Assembly (NCBI GenBank): GCA_017792345.1
Contig: CP051228.1
Coordinates: 3,192,148 to 3,256,147, forward strand
DNA: 64,000 bases
Origin: Mesoflavibacter sp.
Lineage (GTDB): Bacteria; Pseudomonadota; Alphaproteobacteria; UBA8366; Aestuariispiraceae
Direction: 5' to 3'
The notes below the pieces were generated by a model that saw only the letters and a list, made by a program, of their open reading frames with translations, searched no databases and was not told the origin of the DNA. Positions 4,511 to 61,070 of this stretch are shown here, in pieces. The position numbers and the translations under genes are program-made. Each line of letters starts with the position of its first letter. Position 1 is the first letter of the stretch.

Positions 4511-6375
4511 ACGCCATCGCCCAGCCCGTCATCCGCCGCCTTCCGGAGACCCTGGTCAACCGGATCGCGGCCGGTGAGGTCGTCGAACGTCCCGCCTCGG
4601 CGGTCAAGGAGCTGGTCGAGAACGCGCTGGATGCCGGCGCGACGCGGATCGATGTCACCATCCGCGATGGCGGCCGGGCGCTGATCTCCATCGTCGATGA
4701 CGGGCGCGGCATGACGCCGGACGAGCTGAAGATCGCTGTCGAACGGCACGCCACGTCGAAACTGCCGGACGAGGATCTGTTCCACATCACGACATTGGGC
4801 TTCCGGGGCGAGGCGCTGCCGTCGATCGGATCGGTCAGCCGCATGGCGATCACCAGCCGACCGCAGGGCGCGGAGGAGGCTTGGCGCATCGAGATAGAGG
4901 GCGGCCGGGTTTTCGAACCGAAACCGGCGCCCGGCGGGCCGGGCACGACGGTCGAGGTCAGAGACCTGTTCTACAGCACCCCGGCGCGGCTGAAATTCCT
5001 GCGCAGCGCCCGGGCGGAAAGCGGCGCGGTGGCCGACGTCCTGAACCGGCTGGCCATGGCGCATCCCAATGTCGGCTTCTCCCTGACCGATGACGGGCGC
5101 GAGAAACTGCGCCTCAGCGCCGCCCAGGGCGAATTGCTGGACCTGCGCCTGAAGCGGCTGGGCGGGATCATGGGCCGCGAGTTTCAGGAAAACGCGCTGG
5201 CCATCGATGCCGAACGCGAAGGCTTCCGCCTAACCGGTTATGCCGGCGTGCCGACCTTGAACCGCGGCAACGCCATGATGCAGTTCCTGTTCGTCAACGG
5301 ACGCCCGGTCCGCGACAAGCAGTTGATAGGCGCCGTGCGTGGCGCCTATCAGGATTTTCTGGCGCGCGATCGTCATCCGTTGTTGGCGCTGTTTCTGGAA
5401 TGCGAGGCGCGGGCGGTCGACGTCAACGTCCACCCGGCGAAAAGCGAGGTCCGCTTCCGCGAGCCGGGGATCGTGCGCGGCCTGATCGTCAGCGCCCTCA
5501 AGCACGCACTGGCCGAGGCCGGACACCGCGCGTCTACCACCGTCTCGTCCGCCGCCCTGGGCGCGTTCCGGCCGTCGCAATTGCCGGATACGCGCCAGGC
5601 CAGCTTGTCCGGCGGCTATGCCTACCGTCCCCCGCCGCCACCCGCGCCGGGATTGGCGGAACGGTCCTATGATTGGCAGCGGCCGGACGGCTTCGCCCCG
5701 GCGGCCCGTCCCAGCTATGATCCCGGCCCGGCATCGGGCGATCATGTCGATCCGGAAACCGGGGAAGTCACGCGGGCGGAGCGGCCTTTGACCGAGTATC
5801 CGTTGGGCGCGGCGCGGGCGCAGTTGCACGCGACCTATGTCGTGGCCCAGACCGAGGACGGCATCGTCATCGTCGATCAGCATGCCGCCCATGAGCGCCT
5901 GGTCTATGAAACGATGAAGCGCGAGATGGAGAAAGGCGGCGTCCCGCGTCAGGGATTGCTGATCCCGGAAATCGTCGAACTGGACGAGCGGGATGCGGAG
6001 CGGCTGGTGGAACGCGCCGCCGATCTGGAAAAGCTGGGCCTTGTGGTCGAGGCCTTCGGGCCCGGCGCGGTCGCGGTGCGCGAGACGCCGGCGCTGCTGG
6101 GCGAGGTCGATGCGCGCGCGTTGATCCGCGATCTGGCGGACGAGCTGGAGGCGCTGGGCAACACCTTCTCGCTGCAGGAGAAGCTGGAGGAGGTTTGCGG
6201 CACCATGGCCTGTCATGGGTCGGTGCGGGCCGGCCGCCGTCTAAACACCGACGAAATGAATGCCCTGCTGCGCCAGATGGAGGCGACGCCCCACTCCGGC
6301 CAATGCAATCACGGCCGACCGACCTATGTCGAACTGAAGCTGGCCGATATCGAGAAACTGTTCGGCCGCCGGTGA
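4507..6375 (+). CDS. mutL: DNA mismatch repair protein MutL
   Basis: 622-residue mismatch-repair protein that links MutS recognition to strand excision. The N-terminal GHKL ATPase shows the expected motifs: ENALDAGAT (Mg-binding Asn), DDGRGM and [10 protein letters not shown]. The transducer domain ends near residue 335. A proline-rich linker follows (about 345-430). The C-terminal dimerisation/endonuclease domain contains the full metal-binding [12 protein letters not shown] motif plus [11 protein letters not shown] and the QCNHGRP motif. It is therefore an endonuclease-competent MutL, as expected in bacteria lacking MutH. The GTG start overlaps the pgi stop by 4 bases. Confidence 0.97.
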
Positions 6376-6470
6376 CCTTCCATCCCGCCCGACAGGGTAT
6401 TTTCTTTCCCCGGCCAGTGCGCTCGGTTAAACCGATGTCGAGCCAACCAGCCTAAGGTCGCCTTCTGACC

Positions 6471-7652
6471 ATGTCCGCCATCCGCCCGATCCTGCCGGTC
6501 ATCCTGGCCACGATCTTCAACATCGTCGGCATGGGCATGGTCGTGCCGGGGCTGCCCTTTCACGTCACCTCCCATGGCGGAGAGACGGGGGTGGCGCCGC
6601 TGATCTTTTCCGCCTTCTCGGCGGCGGCGGTGCTCGGCGCGCCGGTCTGGGGCTGGCTGTCCGACCGGATGGGGCGCAAACCGGTTCTGCTGGCCTCCGC
6701 CCTTCTGACCGCGCTGTCCTATCTGTGGCTCGCCAATGTCGACAGCCTGACCGAACTTTACGCCAGCCGGATCTTCGCTGGATTGATGGCCGGATGGTTC
6801 GCCGCCTCGATGGCCTATATCGCCGATGTCACCGCGCCGGCGGACCGGGCGAAGGGGATGGGCATGCTGGGCGCGTCTTTCGGCATCGGCTTCACCATCG
6901 GTCCGGCCCTGGGGGCCTGGGCCGTCGGCGGCGACAATCCGGCCTATGCGCTGCCGGCCTATGCGGCGGCGGTCTGCACCGCAATCTGTGCGCTGATCAC
7001 CCTGTTTTTCGTGCGCGAGCCGGAACGCCATTCGACGGACCGGACGGTGCGGTTCGCCACCGATGTGTTGCGCAACGCCGATATCTCGAAACTGCTGGTG
7101 CTGCATTTCACGGTCCATCTGGTCTTCACCGCGATGGAAGGGGTCTTCGCGATCTGGGCGGCGGTCAAATTCGGTCTGGGCGCGCGGGAAGTCGGCTTCT
7201 ATCTGGCCTATGCCGGTCTGGTGACTGTTATCGTTCAAGGCGGGGTCGTGCGCCGGATTGTCCCGGTTCTGGGCGAGGGGCGGGTGATCCTGATCGCGGT
7301 CGGGCTGCTGATGCTGACCATGGCGGCCGTGGTCGCCGTGTCCGATGTCTGGATGATCCTGATCCCTATGGGCCTTCTGGCAGTGGGCATCAGTCTGCAC
7401 AATCCGGCGATGCAGAGCCTGTTGAGCCAGGTCGCCCCGGAACAGATGAAGGGCGGGACGATGGGGAACGCGCAAAGCGCCCAATCCCTGGCCCGGGTCG
7501 CCGGCCCCGCCTGGGGCGCAGCGGCGTTCAGCGAGTTCGGGCCGGATTCGCCCTTCCTGATGGGGTTCGTCATTCTGGCCGGCGCCTTTGTCTTTGCGCT
7601 GTTCCTGTCCAGGCGCTTCACAAAGGCGGCGCTTGCGTCGAATGAAGCATAA
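6471..7652 (+). CDS. MFS transporter, drug-efflux-like
   Basis: 393-residue major facilitator with about twelve hydrophobic helices. Motif A between helices 2 and 3 is clear (GWLSDRMGRKPVLLAS), and a second weaker copy would sit between helices 8 and 9. Its overall style resembles the TetA/Bcr group of proton-driven drug exporters (DHA1), but the substrate cannot be told from sequence. It lies 95 bases downstream of mutL on the same strand and may have its own promoter. The following 120 bases are AT-richer and contain a palindrome that probably belongs to the next operon. Confidence 0.88.
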   Translation: MSAIRPILPVILATIFNIVGMGMVVPGLPFHVTSHGGETGVAPLIFSAFSAAAVLGAPVWGWLSDRMGRKPVLLASALLTALSYLWLANVDSLTELYASRIFAGLMAGWFAASMAYIADVTAPADRAKGMGMLGASFGIGFTIGPALGAWAVGGDNPAYALPAYAAAVCTAICALITLFFVREPERHSTDRTVRFATDVLRNADISKLLVLHFTVHLVFTAMEGVFAIWAAVKFGLGAREVGFYLAYAGLVTVIVQGGVVRRIVPVLGEGRVILIAVGLLMLTMAAVVAVSDVWMILIPMGLLAVGISLHNPAMQSLLSQVAPEQMKGGTMGNAQSAQSLARVAGPAWGAAAFSEFGPDSPFLMGFVILAGAFVFALFLSRRFTKAALASNEA

Positions 7653-7686
7653 ATGCGTGGTGCATTTGCCTGAAGAAATTCAGATA

Positions 7687-7700
7687 AATATACGTATATT
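7687..7700. promoter_or_regulatory. Perfect 14-bp palindrome upstream of the Tad-like genes
   Basis: AATATACGTATATT is a perfect palindrome inside an AT-rich stretch (about 7668-7730) in an otherwise GC-rich region, 77 bases before the first Tad-like gene. A 6-bp inverted repeat (AAATGC, 5-base loop, GCATTT) lies just before it at 7651-7667. A role as a regulator binding site for the 7777-10303 operon is inferred from position only. Confidence 0.35.
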
Positions 7701-7776
7701 GTTGATTTTAAAGCGGTTTTAATTCCCATTCCCGAATGCGCATGATTTCATTCCGGCTCCTGGAGGAGCGGAAGGA

Positions 7777-9210
7777 ATGGGCGTTTCGCGATGTTTGGCG
7801 GGGCTTTCGGGGCAGGCTGCCGCATTCTGGCTTTCGACGTCCGGCGGCACCTTGCCGCTGGCGGCGGGCATGATGTTGTCGCTCGTCGGGTTCGCCGGTG
7901 TGGCCCTGGACGGCGCGCGCCTGATCTATGCCAAGGACGTGCTGCAGCGCGCCGTCGACGCGGGCGGTTTGGCGGCGGGCCATGCGCTGGATGTCGACGA
8001 CATGGATGCGGACGGCCACGACTTCTTCAACGCCAATGTCGCGGCGGGCGGCGGCATCCTGCGAAATACCAATATGAACATCGTGATTTCCGACGACGAC
8101 CGGGTCCTGACCCTGACGGCGACGGCGCAGGTGGAATCGACCTTCATGTCGGTTTTCGGGTTCGAGGCGATCACCGTGTCGGCGTCGACCGAGGTCACGC
8201 GCGAGACGCGCGGTATGGAACTGGCGCTGGTGATGGACAATACCGGCTCCATGCGTTCCGGCGGCAAGATCACGGCGATGAAGGACGCCGCCCGTTCCCT
8301 GGTCAACAACATCTATGGCGACGAGGAGGTGAACCCGAATCTATGGGTCTCGCTGATCCCCTATACCGCGGCGGTGAATGTCGGTGCCGGACGCTCCGCC
8401 TGGCTGGACAGCGACGGGCAGGATGCGATCGATGACGGCGATTTCGGACCGACGGTCTGGAAAGGCTGCGTCGAGGCGCGGGACGGGACCGGGGACCGGA
8501 CCGACGACCCGCCCGCCGACGATCCGTTTTCGATCTATTTCTACGCCGATGCCAGCGATAATGACTGGATCCAGTCCGGCGGCAGCTACGATATCGACGA
8601 GGCGAACGGCGCCGAGAATGACGGGACGGGCCCCAATCTGGGCTGCGGCCCGGCAATCACGCCCCTGACGGCCGCGAAAGGCCCGGTGATCGCGGCGATC
8701 GACGAGATGCTGCCCTGGCATCGGGGCGGCACGACCTCCAATCTGGGGCTGGTCTGGGGCTGGAGGACCCTGTCGCCGCGCTGGCAGGGGCTGTGGGGCG
8801 GGGCGACGCCGTCGGAACTGCCGCTGTCCTATGACGAGCCTTTCATGGACAAGGTCATCGTCGTGCTGACCGACGGCCAGAACCAGTTCTACGATCATAA
8901 TGGCGGCGGGCCGCAAGGGTCGGATTACACCGCCTATGACCGGCTGAATGTCTTCGGCTATGCGACGCTGGATCAGGCGCGGGCGGAAATCGACAGCCGG
9001 TTCGCGGCATTGTGCACGACGATCAAGCAGACCGGCATCAAGATCTTCGCGATCACCTTCGGGTCGACCCCCAATGCGTCGACCCAGTCGCTGTACCGGA
9101 CCTGCGCGTCCAATACCGGCTTCTATTTTCATGCGCCGTCCAATGACGAGTTGCAGACGGTCTTCGATACGATCGGCCGCCAGCTCAGCAATTTGAGGCT
9201 GTCGCAATGA
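7777..9210 (+). CDS. TadG-like protein with von Willebrand A domain
   Basis: 477 residues. The N-terminus carries the Tad-like hydrophobic segment (about residues 25-48), preceded by a short cytoplasmic stretch. This matches the N-terminal domain of TadG pseudopilin-like proteins. After about residue 145 comes a VWA domain with a MIDAS motif DNTGSM and, later, VVLTDGQNQ. The middle contains an Asp-rich insertion (about 215-290). Proteins of this layout are exported to the periplasmic face and are usually encoded with Flp/Tad pilus genes. It is preceded by a good Shine-Dalgarno (GGAGG at 7762). Its stop overlaps the next start (ATGA), and the three genes to 10303 form one operon. Confidence 0.88.
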   Translation: MGVSRCLAGLSGQAAAFWLSTSGGTLPLAAGMMLSLVGFAGVALDGARLIYAKDVLQRAVDAGGLAAGHALDVDDMDADGHDFFNANVAAGGGILRNTNMNIVISDDDRVLTLTATAQVESTFMSVFGFEAITVSASTEVTRETRGMELALVMDNTGSMRSGGKITAMKDAARSLVNNIYGDEEVNPNLWVSLIPYTAAVNVGAGRSAWLDSDGQDAIDDGDFGPTVWKGCVEARDGTGDRTDDPPADDPFSIYFYADASDNDWIQSGGSYDIDEANGAENDGTGPNLGCGPAITPLTAAKGPVIAAIDEMLPWHRGGTTSNLGLVWGWRTLSPRWQGLWGGATPSELPLSYDEPFMDKVIVVLTDGQNQFYDHNGGGPQGSDYTAYDRLNVFGYATLDQARAEIDSRFAALCTTIKQTGIKIFAITFGSTPNASTQSLYRTCASNTGFYFHAPSNDELQTVFDTIGRQLSNLRLSQ

Positions 9211-54490: not shown

Positions 54491-55486
54491 ATGAGCTATA
54501 AAATTCTTGCCCTAAGCGGTGGTGGTTTTTTGGGGCTATATACCGCTACAGTCCTTTCCGAATTAGAGAAGCAATTCGGTGGACCTATTGCATCTAAGTT
54601 TGATTTAATTGCTGGCACATCGGTCGGGGGGATTATAGCGCTAGGCCTAGCTGCAGAAAAACCTGCAGCGGAAATTAAGATGGCCTTCGAAGATCACGCG
54701 ACGTCCATTTTTTCAAGCAGAGCACGTTCAAAGGGAACGTTTGATGCGGTACGCTCCGCCTATCTGGCAATCCAAGGTGCTAAGTACGACGGTATAGGAT
54801 TGCGTAAGGCGGTTGAAGCAGTTGTCGGAAAGCATATGCTGGTGGGCGAACTTCGACACCCAGTTATCGTGCCGACCGTAAATCTGACCCGCGGAATGCC
54901 ACAAGTATTTAGAACGCCGCATCATCTAGATTTTCGTCATGATTATGAATTGAAAGTTGCTGATGTTGCTATTGCGACGTCCGCAGCACCAACTTATTTC
55001 CCAATTGCGGAGATAGGCGATGAATTGTTCGCAGATGGTGGATTGTATGCCAATGCTCCGGACTTTCTAGCGGTGCACGAAGCTGAACATTTTCTGGGGA
55101 AAGGAATTGAAGATATTCATGTTCTGAGTGTTGGTACAACGACGACCCAATACTCTCTGTCTCATGAAATAGATAGAAATATGGGTGTTTTTGGATGGTT
55201 GGGATATTTACCATCTACAATAATATCGTCCCAACAAATTTTATCAGATCAGATCTTAAGGAACCGACTTGGAAATCGATATTTTAGGATTGATACGGTA
55301 CAATCGTCATTTCAAGAGCAACACCTTGGTCTTGACGTAGCTACCGACAATGCCCAAAAGACAATTCGTGGGTTGGCACTTGGAGAGGTCCAGAGAATAA
55401 TATCTAATAAGGGTATTCATGAATTTATGAATAATGTTGCGCCTAAACCTGTCTTTTATCATGGGCGTTATGCTCAGAAATCTTAA
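54491..55486 (+). CDS. Patatin-like phospholipase, CapV-like
   Basis: 331 residues forming one patatin domain. The oxyanion loop is SGGGFLG (residues 9-15). The nucleophile Ser44 lies in GTSVGG and the catalytic Asp182 in ADGGLYANAP, so the Ser-Asp dyad is complete. Overall layout (short N-terminus, no membrane helix, TTTTQYSLSHEID after the dyad) resembles CapV phospholipases, which destroy membranes when switched on by cGAMP in CBASS defence. No CD-NTase or accessory gene is nearby. GC content is far below the neighbours and codon use is AT-biased, indicating acquisition from outside. Confidence 0.87.
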   Translation: MSYKILALSGGGFLGLYTATVLSELEKQFGGPIASKFDLIAGTSVGGIIALGLAAEKPAAEIKMAFEDHATSIFSSRARSKGTFDAVRSAYLAIQGAKYDGIGLRKAVEAVVGKHMLVGELRHPVIVPTVNLTRGMPQVFRTPHHLDFRHDYELKVADVAIATSAAPTYFPIAEIGDELFADGGLYANAPDFLAVHEAEHFLGKGIEDIHVLSVGTTTTQYSLSHEIDRNMGVFGWLGYLPSTIISSQQILSDQILRNRLGNRYFRIDTVQSSFQEQHLGLDVATDNAQKTIRGLALGEVQRIISNKGIHEFMNNVAPKPVFYHGRYAQKS

Positions 55487-55728: not shown

Positions 55729-56409
55729 CTAAGCCACATCCTCCGCATAGATCCGTGCAATCGCGGTCTGGACCTGGAGCCGGACCTCGTCGGCGGAGCG
55801 GTTGAGGTGTTTTTCCAGGAGGGCGCGGGCGGCCGCGGTGTCGCGGGCGGCGATGTGGTCCAGCAGGCGGGCGTGTTCGTCGAGCGTGCTGCCGCGCCGC
55901 TGATCGGTTTCCAGGTTGAGGCGGCGGACGAAGCGGATGCGGGCGTTGATGTTGCGCAGGAAATCCAGGCGGGCCGGATTGCCGGCCAGAGCGGCCAGCG
56001 CGAGGTGGAAATCCTCGTCCTGGGTGACCAGGAGGTCGAGATCCGAGGGGCGTTCTGCGGCAAGCAGGGCACGCCATGTGGTGACGAAATCGTCCAGCGC
56101 GTCCTGGGGCGCCGTTTCCAGCGTCGCCGTCAGCGCGCCCAGTTCCAGATCGCGGCGTACGGCATAGAGGTCGGTCATCTCGCTGATGCTTAGGCGGCGG
56201 CAGAAGAAGCCGCGCTTGGCCTCGAAATGGACCAGCCCGTCGGCGATCAGGCGGTTCAGCGCCTCGCGGATCGGCGCGCGGCTCATGGCCAGGGCGGCGG
56301 CCAGCTCGCTTTCGTTCAGGCGCTCGCCCGGCTTCGTCCGGAAACTGATGACCCGGTCGCGGATCTGCTCATAGGCCAGTTCGACCGCATTTGCCTTCTC
56401 TCCCGCCAT
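55729..56409 (-). CDS. GntR-family regulator, FCD subfamily
   Basis: 226 residues: winged helix-turn-helix (about 5-75: VELAYEQIRDRVISFRTKPG, LAAALAMSRAPIREALNRLIAD) and an all-helical FCD ligand domain (about 85-215) with the usual metal-binding His residues (EDFHLALAALAGN, and two later His). FCD regulators respond to small organic acids. It is divergent from the PhyH/B12-mutase/imine reductase operon (112 bases apart), which it probably represses. Confidence 0.9.
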   Translation of the reverse strand: MAGEKANAVELAYEQIRDRVISFRTKPGERLNESELAAALAMSRAPIREALNRLIADGLVHFEAKRGFFCRRLSISEMTDLYAVRRDLELGALTATLETAPQDALDDFVTTWRALLAAERPSDLDLLVTQDEDFHLALAALAGNPARLDFLRNINARIRFVRRLNLETDQRRGSTLDEHARLLDHIAARDTAAARALLEKHLNRSADEVRLQVQTAIARIYAEDVA

Positions 56410-56521
56410 GGGTCTGCCTCCGGTCCGTGTCCGCCGTCCCGGATATCCTTGACAGGGTTATTCCTTGCCGTCAACGTTGCCGACGGAGCTGTCGACAATT
56501 GTAAATGCTGGGAGCAGGCCA

Positions 56522-57346
56522 ATGACCGCCGCGCAGACGAAAGCCACCGCATCGCCCCATCTGTCGGAGGCGGAGCGGGCGCAGTACCGGGAAAAGGGCT
56601 GGATCGTCCCGCGCTGGGAATTGCCGGCGGCGCTGATCGCCGAGATGCGCCGCGAATATGCCGACCTGCTGGCCCGGAACAGCCATGTGGAATCCGACAT
56701 CATCCTGGCCCCGCATCAGACCAATGGCGGGTCGATGGGGATCAAGGGGTCGGAAAAATGGCTGGAATTCGCGACCCATCCGAAGATCGTCGAGACGGCG
56801 CAGGAACTGATCGGCGACGACATCATCCTGTGGGGCACGACCCTGTTCGGCAAACCGGCGCGCAAGGGCAAGGAGACGCCCTGGCACCAGGACGGGGAGT
56901 ATTATCCGATCCGCCCGCTGGAGACGCTGACCGTCTGGATCCCGCTGGAGGATGTGACGCCGGAAAACGGACCGATGCGCTTCATCCCCGGCTCCCACAA
57001 GAAGCATGAACTCTATAGCCATTCCTGGGTCGAGGGCGGCGACAAGACGATCAACCTCGTCTGCGATACCGAGCATTATGACGAGGCGACGGCGGAATCG
57101 CTGATCATCCGGGCGGGGCAGGTGTCCTTCCACGACGTATACATGATCCACGGGTCGAAGCCGAACCGCACCGACCATCCGCGCCCGGCCTTCATCATCC
57201 GCCTGATGCCCGCGACCTGCTTCTACGACCACGCGCTGGGGGCCGAGACGGGCAAGAAACACCCGGCCCAGGGCTATGGCATCCGCCCGCTTTATCTGAT
57301 CAGCGGCCAGGACCGGGCGAGCAACAACTTTACCATTGGTCACTAA
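56522..57346 (+). CDS. Phytanoyl-CoA dioxygenase (PhyH)-family Fe(II)/2-oxoglutarate enzyme
   Basis: 274 residues. The Fe ligands are His122 and Asp124 (TPWHQDGEYY) and His210 (MIHGSKPNRT), with an Arg in FIIRLM for 2-oxoglutarate. The ENGPMRFIPGSHKKHELYSH segment is family-typical. It probably hydroxylates a small molecule at an unactivated carbon as the first step of the pathway encoded here. The ATG has GGGAG about 6 bases upstream. Downstream, after a 4-base gap, comes the B12-dependent enzyme. Confidence 0.87.
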   Translation: MTAAQTKATASPHLSEAERAQYREKGWIVPRWELPAALIAEMRREYADLLARNSHVESDIILAPHQTNGGSMGIKGSEKWLEFATHPKIVETAQELIGDDIILWGTTLFGKPARKGKETPWHQDGEYYPIRPLETLTVWIPLEDVTPENGPMRFIPGSHKKHELYSHSWVEGGDKTINLVCDTEHYDEATAESLIIRAGQVSFHDVYMIHGSKPNRTDHPRPAFIIRLMPATCFYDHALGAETGKKHPAQGYGIRPLYLISGQDRASNNFTIGH

Positions 57347-57350
57347 GCGC

Positions 57351-59135
57351 ATGACGGACGCGCTGAGCCGCGCGGCGATCCTGCCGGAGGAGACCCTGCC
57401 GTCCGGAACCGAGGTGCTGGCCGAGGGTCGGGCCCTGGCGCAAGAGGTGACCGTCGGCCCCTCCGCCTTCCTGACCGCGCAGGGTGTCGAAAGCGAAACC
57501 GCCTTCAAGCAGCGCGAGGCCGAGGCCGGGCGGATCATGCAGCATGCCCAGATCGGCTTTCGCAGCCTGGACCGCAGCATCGAGGCCGCCGCCGAAATCC
57601 ATGCCCGCGTGGCCGAGGCCGGGTACCGCACCGACCGCTACGGCATCTGCCTGGACTGGTCCATGGGCTATCCAAGGGCGCAGCGCGATGGCCGGCCCAA
57701 GGGCACCGGGCTGATCCTTCAGGGCGAGGAGGATTTTGCGCGCCTCGCCAATGCCGCCCCGGTCGCCGCGCATTTCGGGGATTTCGTCATCGGCATGCCG
57801 GCCGCGCTGGAGAACACCGCCGCGGCCCTGCGCGCCGGATCGACGGCCATCGGCAATCTGGGCCAGTATTTCACCTTCGAACTGCCGGGCTGGCGCGACG
57901 ATGTCGCGACGACCCGCGCGACCGTCGCCGCCATCGCCCTGGCCGCGGCACAGCCGGTCCCGGTCCTGATCCATTCCAATCTGGATGACGGTTTCGCGGC
58001 CCGTTTCACCGATCTCGCCTCGGCGCTCGGCGCCGTGCTGCTGGAGGCCTATATCGTCGACGAGCTGATCGGCGGGCGGGTCAGCCATTGCTATGGCCAC
58101 ACTTTCTCACGCCCGCTCGGCCGTTTCGCCTTTCAGCGCGCGCTGGCCCGGGTCTCGAAATCGCCCGGCACCATGGTCTATGGCAACACGACCTCCTATG
58201 GCGAGAACGAGGCGGCGAGCTATGCCGCGCTGGGCGCCTATCTGGGTGTCGATATCCAGGCGCAGCGCCTGATGCCGTCCGGCCATGCCGTGAACCCGGT
58301 CCCGGTGACGGAGGCGATCCGCATCCCCGATATCGACGAGATCGTCGCCGCCCAGATCTTCTGCGGCGAGAGCGTGCGGCGGACCGAGGGCGTGGAACAG
58401 TTCACCGGAACGGACGCGGTGGACGCGCTGGCCGACCGGCTGGTCGACGGGGCGCGGCGGTTCAAGGCCTCGGTGCTGGCCGGACTGACGGAGGCCGGGA
58501 TCGACATCGCCGACCCGTTCGAGATGTTCCTGTCCCTGCGCCGCATCGGGGCCAAGCGGCTGGAGGAACTCTTCGGGCCGGGCCGGGAAGAGGCGGGCGC
58601 GCCGAACGGCCGCCGCCCGGTCGAGCCGTCGCCGGTCCTGGACGAGATATCGGAACGCGCGGCCCAGGCCCTGACCCACCTGCCCGAGGCACAGCGCAGC
58701 GCCATCGCCGCGTCGAACCTGCGCATCGTCACCGCGACGACCGACGTGCACGAATACGGCAAGCGCCTGCTGGACGACATGCTGGCGCAGCTCGGCGTCA
58801 CCGCCCTGGACGGGCAGGTCAGCACCGATCCCGACCGCCTGGCGGAGGTCGCGCGCGGGGCCGATGCGATCTTCCTCAGTACCTATAACGGTGTCGCGCT
58901 CAGCTTCCTGAAGTCGCTGAAATCCGAACTGGCGGCACGCGGACTGGACGTGCCGGTCTTCATCGGCGGCAAGCTGAACCAGGTGCCCGACACATCGAAT
59001 ACCAGCCTGCCCGTCGATGTCGGCGCGGAACTGGGGGCGGAGGGCGCGATCGTCTGCCGCTCGGTCGAGGATTTCTACGCGCCCCTGGCGGCGCTGATCG
59101 AGGCGAAGGAACCGAAGGAGAGGACGGCACCATGA
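57351..59135 (+). CDS. Glutamate mutase-like B12-dependent enzyme with fused cobalamin-binding domain
   Basis: 594 residues. The N-terminal part (about 35-420) resembles the barrel subunit of methylaspartate (glutamate) mutase, E type, with stretches such as VSHCYGHTFSRPLGRFAFQRAL and YGNTTSYGENEAASYAALGAYLG (partly quoted). The C-terminal domain (about 455-590) carries the base-off B12 motif DxHxxG at Asp465, His467, Gly470 (TTDVHEYGKRLLDD), then IFLSTYNGVALSFL and PVFIGGKLNQ. In classical glutamate mutase these two parts are separate subunits; here they are fused. The substrate is unknown. Its stop overlaps the next start (ATGA). A TTG at 57336 is in frame but less likely as the start. Confidence 0.7.
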   Translation: MTDALSRAAILPEETLPSGTEVLAEGRALAQEVTVGPSAFLTAQGVESETAFKQREAEAGRIMQHAQIGFRSLDRSIEAAAEIHARVAEAGYRTDRYGICLDWSMGYPRAQRDGRPKGTGLILQGEEDFARLANAAPVAAHFGDFVIGMPAALENTAAALRAGSTAIGNLGQYFTFELPGWRDDVATTRATVAAIALAAAQPVPVLIHSNLDDGFAARFTDLASALGAVLLEAYIVDELIGGRVSHCYGHTFSRPLGRFAFQRALARVSKSPGTMVYGNTTSYGENEAASYAALGAYLGVDIQAQRLMPSGHAVNPVPVTEAIRIPDIDEIVAAQIFCGESVRRTEGVEQFTGTDAVDALADRLVDGARRFKASVLAGLTEAGIDIADPFEMFLSLRRIGAKRLEELFGPGREEAGAPNGRRPVEPSPVLDEISERAAQALTHLPEAQRSAIAASNLRIVTATTDVHEYGKRLLDDMLAQLGVTALDGQVSTDPDRLAEVARGADAIFLSTYNGVALSFLKSLKSELAARGLDVPVFIGGKLNQVPDTSNTSLPVDVGAELGAEGAIVCRSVEDFYAPLAALIEAKEPKERTAP

Positions 59136-59917
59136 CGACAATCGGCATACTCGGCGTCGGCTATCTGGGCGAATGTCTGGCGGAGGGGCTGGCGGGGGCA
59201 ATCGGGGAGGGGGCCGACTTCACCGTTCTGCTGTCCCCGCGCAGCGCCGCCCGCGCCGCCCGTCTTTCGGAAAAGCACGGCTATGAGATCGCCCGGGACA
59301 ATGCCGATCTGGTGACGCGGTCCGATTTCGTCTTCCTGGCGACCAAGCCAGAACAGATCGTCGACACCGCCAGCGGCCTGCCCTGGCGCGAAAGCCAGCG
59401 GGCGGTTTCCATCGCGGCCGGGATCACGCTGCCCGCGATCCGCGCGGCGGTCGCGCCCGCCACGGCGCTCCGCTCCATGCCCATCGCCGCCAGCCGCATC
59501 CGCCAGAGCCCGACCGCCTATTGCCCGCCCGACGAAATGGCCGAGGAAGTCTTCGCCGCGCTCGGCTCCGCCCATGCCGTGGACGGCGACGAGCAGTTCG
59601 AAACCGCCAGCATCTTCGGCGCCTATTACGGCCATCTGCATGTGCTCTACGACACGGTCGCCGGCTGGGCACAGAACAACGGCCTGCCCGCCGAAACCGC
59701 CCGCGCGCTCACCGCCCGCATGGCCCAGGCCGCCGCCGCGTCGATCCTCACCCAAACCGACCGCCGCCCCCGCGCCCCGCTGGACGATCTGATGACCGAA
59801 GGCGGCATCACCAAGGCCGGCCTCAACATCCTAGACGCCGCCGACGCCTTCACCCCCTGGTCCGACGCCCTAACCACCGCCCGCAGGCGGTCGGGGGAGA
59901 TTGCGGGGGAGGGATAG
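59132..59917 (+). CDS. Pyrroline-5-carboxylate reductase-like imine/oxo reductase
   Basis: 261 residues with an N-terminal Rossmann fold (IGILGVGYLGECLAEGL) and the ProC-type dimerisation domain (about 165-250: TARALTARMAQAAAAS, DDLMTEGGITKAGLNIL). The residues MPIAASRIRQSPTAYCPP replace the ProC motif around MPN, so it is probably not a housekeeping proline enzyme. It is the third gene of the operon, overlapping the B12 enzyme, and may reduce or oxidise an intermediate of that pathway. Confidence 0.8.
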   Translation: MTTIGILGVGYLGECLAEGLAGAIGEGADFTVLLSPRSAARAARLSEKHGYEIARDNADLVTRSDFVFLATKPEQIVDTASGLPWRESQRAVSIAAGITLPAIRAAVAPATALRSMPIAASRIRQSPTAYCPPDEMAEEVFAALGSAHAVDGDEQFETASIFGAYYGHLHVLYDTVAGWAQNNGLPAETARALTARMAQAAAASILTQTDRRPRAPLDDLMTEGGITKAGLNILDAADAFTPWSDALTTARRRSGEIAGEG

Positions 59918-60113: not shown

Positions 60114-61070
60114 ATGAGCAAATACGATTCCCTTCGGACACACCTAACTAGCCGCAAAAACAAACGATGGCGTGCGACGTTCTCGGAAATTGAAAGGGTG
60201 TTGGGTTTTGAATTGCCGCCAAGCGCCAGAAAATATCAGGCTTGGTGGGCCAACGAATCGGGGACGCAATATTCTCAGAAACTCGCTTGGAGTAACGCCG
60301 GATGGAGAACAACTAATCTGAACCTTACGGCGGAAACTGTCGAATTCGAAGTGGATGACGCAGCCGATCTCACCCGAAATGCTGTGAGAACAAGAACTAG
60401 TGAGCCTAGTTTCGCGGATCGGCAATCGGAACGTCCGGATTTTTGGCTGGATAAGGTTTTGGAACGATTGGCCATGGTGCGTCCCATCTTTCATTCCGAA
60501 GCAGACTTCCAGCACGCCCTCGCTTGGTCCATCCGAGAACTCAATCATCACGACCCCGTACGCCTTGAATTCAAGCCAGTTCCGGAAGAGCGCATCCACA
60601 TCGATATTTGGATAGGACGACAGCCACCTGTCGCCATCGAGCTCAAGTACCCGACACGAGCCACCTTGGCGAACGTGAATGGCGAACATTTCGCCCTGAC
60701 TAACCAGTCAGCACAGGACCTGACGCGCTATGATTTTCTGAAAGACGTTGCGCGTATTGAGCGCATTTCCCAAACCTTTCCCGGTGCGAGCGGTTTTGCA
60801 GCCTTACTGACGAACGACCGTTCTTACTGGCTACCTAGCCGTCGCGAAACGCCGGTAGACGATGCATTTCGCCTTTTTGATGGGCGCTCTATATCCGGCG
60901 AACTGGCTTGGCTTGAACATGCAGGAGCAGGAACAGTAAAACGACGCGAACAACCAGTATCAATCAGGGGAACTTATGACCTTAGTTGGCGACCTTACTC
61001 AAGGGTTGGAAAAGGAACCTATGGAGAATTCAGGTATCTGCTCATTGCGGTGAACCCATCGCCTCAGTAG
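60114..61070 (+). CDS. DUF7662-like plus PD-(D/E)XK nuclease-like protein
   Basis: 318 residues. The N-terminus (about 1-80: YDSLRTHLTS, FSEIERVLGFELPPSARKYQAWWANE, AWSNAGWRT) is the DUF7662 type of small domain often fused to nucleases. The C-terminal part (about 120-240) has a PD-(D/E)XK core: Glu129 in a helix (FHSEADFQHAL), Asp164 (HIDIWIG), then Glu176-x-Lys178 (VAIELKYPTR). It is thus a candidate single-gene nuclease for defence or DNA processing. GC is lower than the neighbours. The 196 bases upstream show no clear promoter. No methylase gene is present. Confidence 0.72.
   Translation: MSKYDSLRTHLTSRKNKRWRATFSEIERVLGFELPPSARKYQAWWANESGTQYSQKLAWSNAGWRTTNLNLTAETVEFEVDDAADLTRNAVRTRTSEPSFADRQSERPDFWLDKVLERLAMVRPIFHSEADFQHALAWSIRELNHHDPVRLEFKPVPEERIHIDIWIGRQPPVAIELKYPTRATLANVNGEHFALTNQSAQDLTRYDFLKDVARIERISQTFPGASGFAALLTNDRSYWLPSRRETPVDDAFRLFDGRSISGELAWLEHAGAGTVKRREQPVSIRGTYDLSWRPYSRVGKGTYGEFRYLLIAVNPSPQ

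What the first reader, a model, noticed from the sequence alone, without database searches (positions are those of the whole stretch)
55729..59917. Possible new catabolic pathway: PhyH dioxygenase, fused B12 mutase-like enzyme and ProC-like reductase
A GntR-FCD regulator is divergent from three genes that overlap or nearly touch. The middle enzyme fuses a glutamate-mutase-type barrel to a base-off cobalamin domain (DxHxxG at 465-470), whereas classical enzymes use two subunits. A hydroxylation, a B12 carbon-skeleton or amino-group rearrangement, and an imine/oxo reduction could form a short route for an amino-acid-like substrate that is not in the pathways I know.
Basis: partly seen in the sequence, partly recalled or inferred. 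Interest (0 to 1): 0.72.

Follow-up and report, generated by a model that had tools for sequence, protein, structure and literature searches.

The report
Unassigned one-chain B12 mutase family
A four-gene bacterial cluster holds a widespread, unassigned vitamin-B12 radical enzyme that usually travels with its own proline-type reductase, so it probably marks an undescribed way of rearranging an amino acid, although its substrate is still unknown.

Summary
A GntR-FCD regulator diverges from three packed genes: a PhyH oxygenase, a fused mutase-like protein with DVHEYG at 465-470, and a ProC-like reductase. Pfam and NCBIfam recognise only the fused protein's B12 domain. Its predicted structure (pLDDT 91.5) matches glutamate mutase GlmE best by VIA-align (Z 28.8, 12% identity), then lysine 5,6-aminomutase. 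Invariant Glu321 aligns, weakly, with GlmE Glu330, reported to hold the adenosyl ribose. The lysine that holds PLP in B12 aminomutases is absent. A deep branch lies beside MutL in 2 of 2 genomes. So it is most likely a one-chain, PLP-free, adenosylcobalamin-dependent mutase of glutamate-mutase type.

The reductase partnership is real: within 1.5 kb in 43 of 71 testable loci, in several arrangements. PhyH is an add-on (12 of 80 loci). In three separate lineages the mutase sits in or beside hydroxyproline-type genes; elsewhere, beside N-demethylation-type genes. This points to a cyclic or N-substituted amino acid but does not prove one. The paper searches run here found no description of the family. 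New variant of a known kind.

The parts
55729..56409 (-). GntR family regulator with FCD ligand domain (226 aa), divergent from the operon
   Evidence: Pfam FCD 79.5 bits, GntR 61.9 bits; relatives beside the mutase operon in L032 (67%) and beside the reductase in L101 and L110 (36-37%)
56489..56498 (.). Candidate regulator operator CTGTCGACAA in the GntR/PhyH gap
   Evidence: Of 14 gaps scanned: also in the matching gap of L032 and in the reductase/GntR gap of a Neorhizobium plasmid (L129); as CTGTAGACAC in L130-L132; absent from 8. Resembles the FadR-subfamily motif TKGT/ACMA quoted in PMC6608401. In the window alone the pattern is not above chance: 3 matches with one mismatch, 1.25 expected
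56522..57346 (+). PhyH-family Fe(II)/2-oxoglutarate oxygenase (274 aa); H122, D124, H210 read as iron ligands
   Evidence: Pfam PhyH 119.6 bits; solved relatives include phytanoyl-CoA and ectoine hydroxylases; the ligand reading is by eye from family knowledge
57351..59135 (+). Single-chain B12 mutase-like enzyme (594 aa): GlmE-like barrel followed by a cobalamin-binding domain
   Evidence: Model pLDDT 91.5, pTM 0.91; 1cb7_B GlmE Z 28.8, rmsd 3.4, 365 aligned; GlmS 1i9c_A Z 14.4, rmsd 2.6, 126 aligned, residues 454-586
58743..58760 (+). DxHxxG base-off cobalamin motif, DVHEYG, residues 465-470
   Evidence: Read; D465 and H467 invariant in 88 of 88 rows, G470 in 83 of 88
58311..58313 (+). Codon of Glu321, aligned with Glu330 of glutamate mutase
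   Evidence: Local profile alignment of P0001 V319-T320-E321 to L114 V272-A273-E274 (weak: probability 3.6%, E 0.012 for one comparison); L114 274 lies opposite GlmE chain residue 330; E321 invariant in 88 of 88 rows
59132..59917 (+). Dedicated ProC-like (P5CR-family) NAD(P)-dependent reductase (261 aa), overlapping the mutase stop by 4 bp
   Evidence: P5CR_dimer and F420_oxidored; best NCBIfam PRK06476 at 112 bits, below its cut-off of 254; the genome has a separate canonical ProC at 233.9 bits

Best explanation
The cluster is a GntR-controlled amino-acid operon built around a one-chain, PLP-free, adenosylcobalamin-dependent radical mutase of glutamate-mutase type and a dedicated P5CR-family dehydrogenase/reductase. 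Inferred mechanism: cobalamin binds base-off with His467 below cobalt; Glu321 holds the adenosyl ribose; substrate closure breaks the Co-C bond; the deoxyadenosyl radical takes a hydrogen from a small amino (or imino) acid held by conserved barrel residues (R96, D144, D213, E232, R324 are invariant in the 88 rows); a 1,2-shift follows as in glutamate mutase. The ProC-like partner then interconverts the amino acid and its (probably cyclic) imine. In the window's clade the PhyH enzyme hydroxylates the substrate or a neighbour of it. The likeliest substrate class is a cyclic or N-substituted amino acid related to (hydroxy)proline. Shown here: gene order, predicted fold, conserved motifs, recurrent partnership. 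Inferred: cofactor, chemistry, order of steps, substrate class.
For: Fold: model pLDDT 91.5; VIA-align matches GlmE Z 28.8, lysine 5,6-aminomutase Z 27.0, ornithine aminomutase Z 23.1, methylmalonyl-CoA mutases about 17-21; B12 domain to GlmS Z 14.4. Cofactor motif D465/H467 in 88 of 88 rows and E321 in 88 of 88, aligned with GlmE E330; E330's ribose role is quoted in PMC3958899 (passages). Deep branch beside MutL (452.8 and 397.5 bits); MutL exceeds its cut-off in 2 of 385 class genomes (25 more have only weak matches below it), exactly the two with the deep branch. The genome encodes a cobalamin adenosyltransferase (223.4 bits). Reductase: within 1.5 kb in 43 of 71 testable loci (38 downstream, 4 upstream, 1 divergent), with 17 changes of arrangement or presence on the tree; genome co-occurrence of its subfamily with the mutase 11 of 17 against 1.1 expected, P 1.3e-10 without correction for relatedness. 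Hydroxyproline context: 4-hydroxyproline epimerase above the curated cut-off (574 vs 376) in the Ancylobacter-type operon; Pro_racemase in 10 of 80 loci, 4 changes on the tree; Phyllobacterium plasmid with GntR, reductase and mutase near racemase, FAD dehydrogenase, dapA-like, ALDH and amino-acid ABC genes.
Against: No sequence-level match of the barrel to glutamate mutase; the E321 alignment is weak and the Arg 'claw' of glutamate mutase (recalled) could not be mapped. Plain Foldseek ranks methylmalonyl-CoA mutases above GlmE. 28 of 71 testable loci lack the reductase within 1.5 kb (11 of these have an AspDH-like dehydrogenase within 3.6 kb). 15 of the 26 genomes with the reductase subfamily have no mutase. 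Main-branch genomes other than G297, which has both branches, have no MutL over cut-off, so their reactivation partner is unknown. Hydroxyproline genes are present in a minority of loci; the Phyllobacterium hydroxyproline set looks complete without a mutase; and the window genome's only Pro_racemase hit lies about 2.6 Mb away. No transporter is among the 8 flanking window ORFs scanned; an acyl-CoA dehydrogenase 1.5 kb downstream and other flanking genes are not explained by the model.
Confidence: 0.58

Rival explanations
1. A radical eliminase rather than a mutase: the B12 counterpart of the glycyl-radical hydroxyproline dehydratase HypD, dehydrating a hydroxylated cyclic amino acid to an imine that the ProC-like partner reduces.
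For: HypD feeds P5C to a P5C reductase (recalled; one search lists papers that hold these terms). Here a ProC-like gene is the commonest partner and hydroxyproline genes recur. Other dehydratases exist in both glycyl-radical and B12 forms (recalled).
Against: The fold and the base-off motif are those of mutases; known B12 eliminases keep the lower base on (recalled). With a PhyH beside it, a net hydroxylation-dehydration-reduction would be circular unless the sites differ.
Confidence: 0.12
2. A PLP-dependent 1,2-aminomutase related to lysine 5,6- and ornithine 4,5-aminomutase; the partner dehydrogenase oxidises the moved amine.
For: Next-best structural matches are the aminomutases (Z 27.0 and 23.1). 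In G066 a weakly P5CR-like gene directly precedes the lysine aminomutase genes.
Against: The lysine 8 residues after the DxHxxG glycine, present in the G066 lysine aminomutase (DTHSVG then LDAILNLK), is L, F, M or C in all 88 rows; Lys144/Lys629 of the Rossmann domain hold PLP (PMC3958899, passages).
Confidence: 0.12
3. A biosynthetic module that makes an unusual amino acid (for example a methylated or ring-changed proline) rather than a catabolic one.
For: A 2-oxoglutarate oxygenase plus a ProC homologue make methylproline in some peptide antibiotics (recalled). Tandem mutase arrays, five genes in L047 (one interrupted) and three in L050, are odd for a simple catabolic step.
Against: FCD regulator, transporters and oxidative genes at many loci. 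No peptide-assembly gene was noticed by eye near the loci read, but none was searched for.
Confidence: 0.13
4. A corrinoid methyltransferase or other methyl-B12 protein for N-methyl amino acids, not a radical mutase.
For: N-demethylation-type genes neighbour several loci: DMGDH-type (L039, L122), trimethylamine-methyltransferase-like and OYE genes (L092, both below curated cut-offs), Rieske and OYE clusters (L091).
Against: The barrel best matches mutases; E321 is conserved; MutL lies beside the deep branch.
Confidence: 0.05

Closest known systems
Glutamate (methylaspartate) mutase GlmES / MutES
   Same: Predicted barrel fold (1cb7_B Z 28.8) and B12 domain fold (1i9c_A Z 14.4); DxHxxG; Glu aligned (weakly) with Glu330; deep branch beside MutL
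   Different: One chain, barrel first; no Met_asp_mut_E profile match; 12% identity in the barrel alignment; different partners; no MutL over cut-off with the main branch except in G297
Ornithine 4,5- and lysine 5,6-aminomutases
   Same: Similar fold (Z 23.1 and 27.0); the ornithine aminomutase chain also joins barrel and B12 domain
   Different: PLP-binding lysine absent in 88 of 88 rows
Methylmalonyl-CoA mutase family
   Same: Barrel followed by B12 domain in one chain; Z up to about 21; top of the Foldseek list
   Different: No profile match of the barrel; no CoA-linked enzyme is a constant partner
ProC / P5C reductase, PRK06476 subfamily
   Same: Both Pfam domains; the Phyllobacterium partner passes the PRK06476 cut-off (308 vs 254)
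   Different: The window's copy scores 112 of 254, and 104 of 197 for proC; a canonical ProC is elsewhere in the genome
Glycyl-radical trans-4-hydroxyproline dehydratase HypD with P5C reductase
   Same: Would work like it in outline: radical enzyme paired with a P5CR-type enzyme (HypD recalled)
   Different: B12 in place of a glycyl radical; no sequence relation tested

Membership tests
Glutamate mutase (GlmES) | Met_asp_mut_E (PF06368) barrel profile | tested here: not met
   No hit at E up to 0.1 for P0001; no match for G000 in the genome search
Glutamate mutase (GlmES) | GlmE barrel fold | tested here: met
   Predicted model against 1cb7_B: Z 28.8, rmsd 3.4 over 365 residues
Glutamate mutase (GlmES) | Arginine claw that binds the two carboxylates of glutamate | tested here: inconclusive
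   Claw recalled; no reliable alignment of that part of the barrel; R96 and R324 are in 88 of 88 rows, R71, R112 and R258 in 85, 87 and 86
Base-off adenosylcobalamin mutases | DxHxxG cobalamin motif | tested here: met
   D465 and H467 in 88 of 88 rows, G470 in 83
Base-off adenosylcobalamin mutases | Conserved Glu that holds the adenosyl ribose (GlmE 330, OAM 338) | tested here: inconclusive
   E321 invariant and aligned with 330, but the profile alignment is weak; role from PMC3958899, passages
Base-off adenosylcobalamin mutases | Binding of and activity with adenosylcobalamin | not testable with these tools
   Needs protein
PLP-dependent B12 aminomutases | PLP-binding lysine in the Rossmann domain | tested here: not met
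   Column 478 is L 65, F 15, M 4, C 4 of 88 rows; yardstick is the lysine in the G066 lysine aminomutase, matched to Lys144/Lys629 by position only
P5C reductase (ProC) | F420_oxidored plus P5CR_dimer domains | tested here: met
   45.6 and 40.9 bits, over their cut-offs
P5C reductase (ProC) | Curated proC or PRK06476 cut-off | tested here: not met
   104.3 of 196.75 and 112 of 254
PhyH oxygenases | PhyH profile | tested here: met
   119.6 bits, cut-off 22
GntR, FCD subfamily | GntR and FCD domains | tested here: met
   61.9 and 79.5 bits

The most novel reading that the evidence does not exclude
The family catalyses an undescribed adenosylcobalamin reaction on a cyclic or N-substituted amino or imino acid (for example a skeletal shift or ring opening of a hydroxyproline-type compound) with neither PLP nor CoA, in aerobic bacteria, and the ProC-like partner takes up the imine product: a new B12-dependent amino-acid pathway spread over many proteobacterial lineages.
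Probability: 0.3. Interest if true: 0.85.

Novelty: new variant of a known kind. Interest (0 to 1): 0.6.

Why it matters
Few kinds of adenosylcobalamin mutase are known (recalled), and neither Pfam nor NCBIfam recognises this barrel. The family is not rare (17 of 385 class genomes) and comes with a frequent partner enzyme, a recurring type of regulator and cultivable hosts, so its substrate can be sought directly. If the reading is right, it adds a B12-dependent route for amino-acid use in marine and soil bacteria and a new demand for vitamin B12.

Tried and rejected
Sequence routes to the barrel's family: Pfam and NCBIfam gave only the B12 domain; a profile search of solved structures gave only B12-domain matches at E under 0.02 and chance-like ones above; profile-profile comparison with four glutamate mutase sequences gave a probability of about 4%, and a global run was meaningless. 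A direct profile test against the G066 lysine aminomutase chains gave nothing. PHROGs and PADLOC were not scanned.

Housekeeping ProC: rejected, because a canonical ProC lies elsewhere. Chance ORF or lone fusion: rejected. Neighbours that looked shared but are plainly unrelated (gyrB, S11 peptidase, TPR cyclase, sulfatase) were not used. The dehydrogenase next to the mutase in L076, L081, L086 and L104 looked like crotonyl-CoA reductase by eye; Pfam on the L076 copy gives only a zinc-binding dehydrogenase, so no CoA pathway is claimed. Six mutase ORFs in L047 were first read as six genes; two of them (6069-6590 and 6600-7847) are pieces of one gene with a stop inside (the same stretch is L031 of the same contig), so the count is five.

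Paper searches with terms for glutamate mutase with proline racemase, with hydroxyproline, fused methylaspartate mutase, the full gene set, AdoCbl with hydroxyproline, and fused mutases with neighbourhoods returned nothing on this family as far as titles and abstracts show; some searches were background. The neighbourhood study of the proline racemase superfamily (PMC4113996, term search of its main text only) does not hold the words mutase, cobalamin or B12. Passages of PMC12899673 on ProC substrates were seen and not used. Absence from print beyond these open-licence searches is not claimed.

Operator in other gaps: not found in L101 (60 bases only), L106, L110, L111, L128, L090, L096, L103. 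No sigma-70-like promoter was found and the one terminator-like site is not above chance.

Rows dropped: of loci L001-L031, alignment A2 used the window protein (= L001) and 21 loci; left out were L006 and L021 (the stop counted there turned out to be the gene's end), L031 (stop inside), L024 and L030 (partial), and L007-L010 (matched over the B12 domain and part of what precedes it, in frames of 1167-1237 aa). Nine of 80 loci were set aside in the reductase count because the contig ends within 1.5 kb. Of 189 relatives found by the genome-contig scan only the 80 retained were read, many on short contigs, so counts of distant neighbours are lower bounds.
Full report
OBSERVATION. The cluster is as described: GntR-FCD 55729-56409 (-), PhyH 56522-57346, fused protein 57351-59135, ProC-like 59132-59917. 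Spacing is 4 bp and then a 4-bp overlap. DVHEYG sits at 465-470. Pfam confirms the regulator, PhyH and ProC-like calls. For the fused protein Pfam sees only the B12 domain, just over its cut-off (32.2 against 32.1 bits); NCBIfam gives only sub-threshold matches there, to methylaspartate mutase S, methionine synthase and the methylmalonyl-CoA mutase C-terminal domain.

FOLD. A model built on 22 sequences reached pLDDT 91.5 and pTM 0.91. The closest solved structures by VIA-align are glutamate mutase GlmE (1cb7_B, Z 28.8, rmsd 3.4, 365 aligned, 12% identity), lysine 5,6-aminomutase (8t0v_A, Z 27.0), ornithine aminomutase (3kow_A, Z 23.1, rmsd 25 over both domains, so the domains sit differently) and methylmalonyl-CoA mutases (about 17-21). 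GlmS matches residues 454-586 (1i9c_A, Z 14.4). Plain Foldseek ranks methylmalonyl-CoA mutases first and GlmE at 19 and 20; the two programs agree on the class but not on the order. No sequence method placed the barrel in a family.

COFACTOR RESIDUES. In 88 aligned rows (86 main-branch, 2 deep) D465, H467 and E468 are invariant and G470 holds in 83. The only stretch that local profile alignment pairs with glutamate mutase is 319-386, at a probability of 3.6% and an E-value of 0.012 for one comparison. In it E321 pairs with residue 274 of L114, which lies opposite residue 330 of the GlmE chain. E321 is invariant in 88 of 88 rows. A review says that Glu330 of glutamate mutase was suggested to interact with the adenosyl ribose, and that Glu338 of ornithine aminomutase controls Co-C homolysis (PMC3958899, passages). 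The same review places the PLP lysine of lysine aminomutase in the Rossmann domain and names Lys629 as that of ornithine aminomutase. In the lysine aminomutase of G066 a lysine stands eight residues after the DxHxxG glycine; the corresponding column here is L, F, M or C in all 88 rows. That this lysine is the PLP lysine follows from the review plus position, not from a structure read here. The genome has a cobalamin adenosyltransferase (223.4 bits).

FAMILY. Relatives at E up to 1e-20 occur in 17 of 385 genomes of the class, the window's own included, and strong full-length ones in 5 of 6 genomes of its genus, itself included. A scan of GTDB genome contigs confirmed 189 relatives and kept 80, mostly Alphaproteobacteria, with some Gammaproteobacteria and single MAGs named Anaerolineae, Thermoanaerobaculia and Heimdallarchaeota, which may be binning errors. 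Plasmids hold 9 matches, 8 of them over at least 80% of the query; the PLSDB table names them 'cobalamin-dependent protein', hypothetical or nothing, and the one fragment a DUF1349 protein. A deep branch at 33-35% identity (L122 in G297, L125 in G373) lies directly beside MutL (452.8 and 397.5 bits). Over 385 genomes MutL passes its cut-off only in these two; 25 others show weak matches below it (chance of both coinciding 1.4e-5). MutL as the accessory protein of glutamate mutase is recalled. The link supports a radical mutase. G297 also has a main-branch copy; the other main-branch genomes have no MutL over cut-off, an open question.

PARTNER. A ProC-like gene lies within 1.5 kb in 43 of 71 testable loci of the 80: 38 downstream, 4 upstream, 1 divergent; 28 lack it, and 9 were undecided at contig ends. 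On a tree of 96 rows arrangement or presence changes 17 times. Of the 28, 11 have an AspDH-like dehydrogenase within 3.6 kb. Bosea and Neorhizobium carry both types in one neighbourhood, the ProC-like gene 7-9 kb from the mutase beside a GntR gene. Other single loci have a lactate/malate-type (L085) or 2-hydroxyacid-type (L099) dehydrogenase next to the mutase. By genome, the reductase subfamily PRK06476 (loose threshold) is in 26 of 385 and coincides with the mutase in 11, against 1.1 expected (P 1.3e-10, uncorrected for relatedness). But 15 of those 26 have no mutase, including the three genomes over the curated cut-off, so the reductase family has other uses. The genome's housekeeping ProC is a different gene.

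PHYH AND REGULATOR. PhyH is within 1.5 kb in 12 of 80 loci, with 8 changes on the tree: eight are close to the window's copy (68-79% identity), one is 43% and three are 28-29%. A relative of the regulator recurs at 14 of 80 loci at E up to 1e-15 and at plasmid loci L128-L132. CTGTCGACAA occurs in the gap in the window, in L032 (reverse form) and in the Neorhizobium reductase/regulator gap; three Shinella/Sinorhizobium gaps have CTGTAGACAC; eight other gaps lack both. It resembles TKGT/ACMA, quoted for the FadR subfamily in a paper on HypR, an FCD regulator of hydroxyproline genes (PMC6608401, passages).

CONTEXT AND SUBSTRATE. In Ancylobacter, Ochrobactrum and Brucella records (seven loci) the operon is cupin, SDR, AspDH-like, DadA-like, 4-hydroxyproline epimerase (574 bits, cut-off 376), mutase, DapA-like, trans-3-hydroxyproline dehydratase-like (439 of 550) and an alpha/beta hydrolase (family scans on the L106 copies). 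A second lineage (L069, L073, L074) has Pro_racemase genes beside the mutase. A third, on a Phyllobacterium plasmid, has GntR, reductase and mutase divergent from an amino-acid ABC transporter, dapA-like, FAD dehydrogenase, aldehyde dehydrogenase and proline racemase genes. Pro_racemase is present in 10 of 80 loci; in the window's own genome its one hit lies about 2.6 Mb away. Other loci carry N-demethylation-type genes: DMGDH-type in L039 and L122, sarcosine-oxidase-like in L082 (read by eye), trimethylamine-methyltransferase-like, GcvT/DAO and OYE genes in L092 (all below curated cut-offs), and members of the Rieske and OYE clusters in L091. M20-family hydrolases precede the mutase in four loci. 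The common thread is amino acids with a secondary or tertiary nitrogen; this is an inference from neighbours and a minority signal. In the window itself the nearest other ORFs are patatin-like, Rrf2, cupin and CMD upstream, and DUF7662, acyl-CoA dehydrogenase and SDR downstream; none is tied to the cluster here.

MECHANISM. Most likely: base-off AdoCbl, Glu321-assisted homolysis, hydrogen abstraction, and a 1,2-shift without PLP or CoA as in glutamate mutase, followed by the ProC-like enzyme acting on the amino/imine pair. What is shown is the predicted fold, the conserved residues and the partnership; cofactor, chemistry and substrate are inferred.

VERDICT. New variant of a known kind, interest 0.6.

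Noticed in passing
L122:6998-10156 and L125:1178-4366: A deep branch of the mutase family (33-35% identity) sits beside MutL, and these are the only two MutL-positive genomes over cut-off among 385; main-branch genomes other than G297 lack it, so their reactivation partner is unknown.
   Followed up: partly
L047:641-9637 and L050:878-6761: Tandem mutase genes: five in L047, one of them interrupted by a stop, followed by two ProC-like genes; three in L050; paired orthologues on the tree.
   Followed up: partly
L146:693-3821 (genome G066): A weakly P5CR-like gene directly precedes lysine 5,6-aminomutase genes; the same genome also has a GlmS-GlmE fusion and a member of the new family.
   Followed up: partly
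L112:1477-4080: A natural one-chain GlmS-GlmE fusion (867-aa frame, B12 domain first), the reverse order of the window's enzyme; the B12 part was read by eye.
   Followed up: no
L133:6689-7654: A Rhizobium lentis plasmid carries only about the last third of the mutase, near IS66 transposase genes and annotated as a DUF1349 protein: probably a remnant.
   Followed up: no
L129:5181-19442: Neorhizobium plasmid neighbourhood with FAD_binding_2 protein, cupin, AspDH-like, hydrolase, mutase, SDR, PDH-type E1/E2, 3HCDH-like, SDR, ProC and GntR: perhaps the most complete version of the pathway.
   Followed up: partly
window 54491-55486: Patatin-like phospholipase gene (102.1 bits), apparently AT-richer than its surroundings by eye, just outside the cluster.
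   Followed up: partly
window 60114-61070: ORF with an N-terminal DUF7662 domain (50.6 bits) and no other recognised domain, just downstream of the cluster.
   Followed up: no
G136, G244, G333, G410 (1.2-1.3 Mb genomes): Small genomes carry the PRK06476-type reductase without any mutase hit, so this reductase subfamily has another role there.
   Followed up: no
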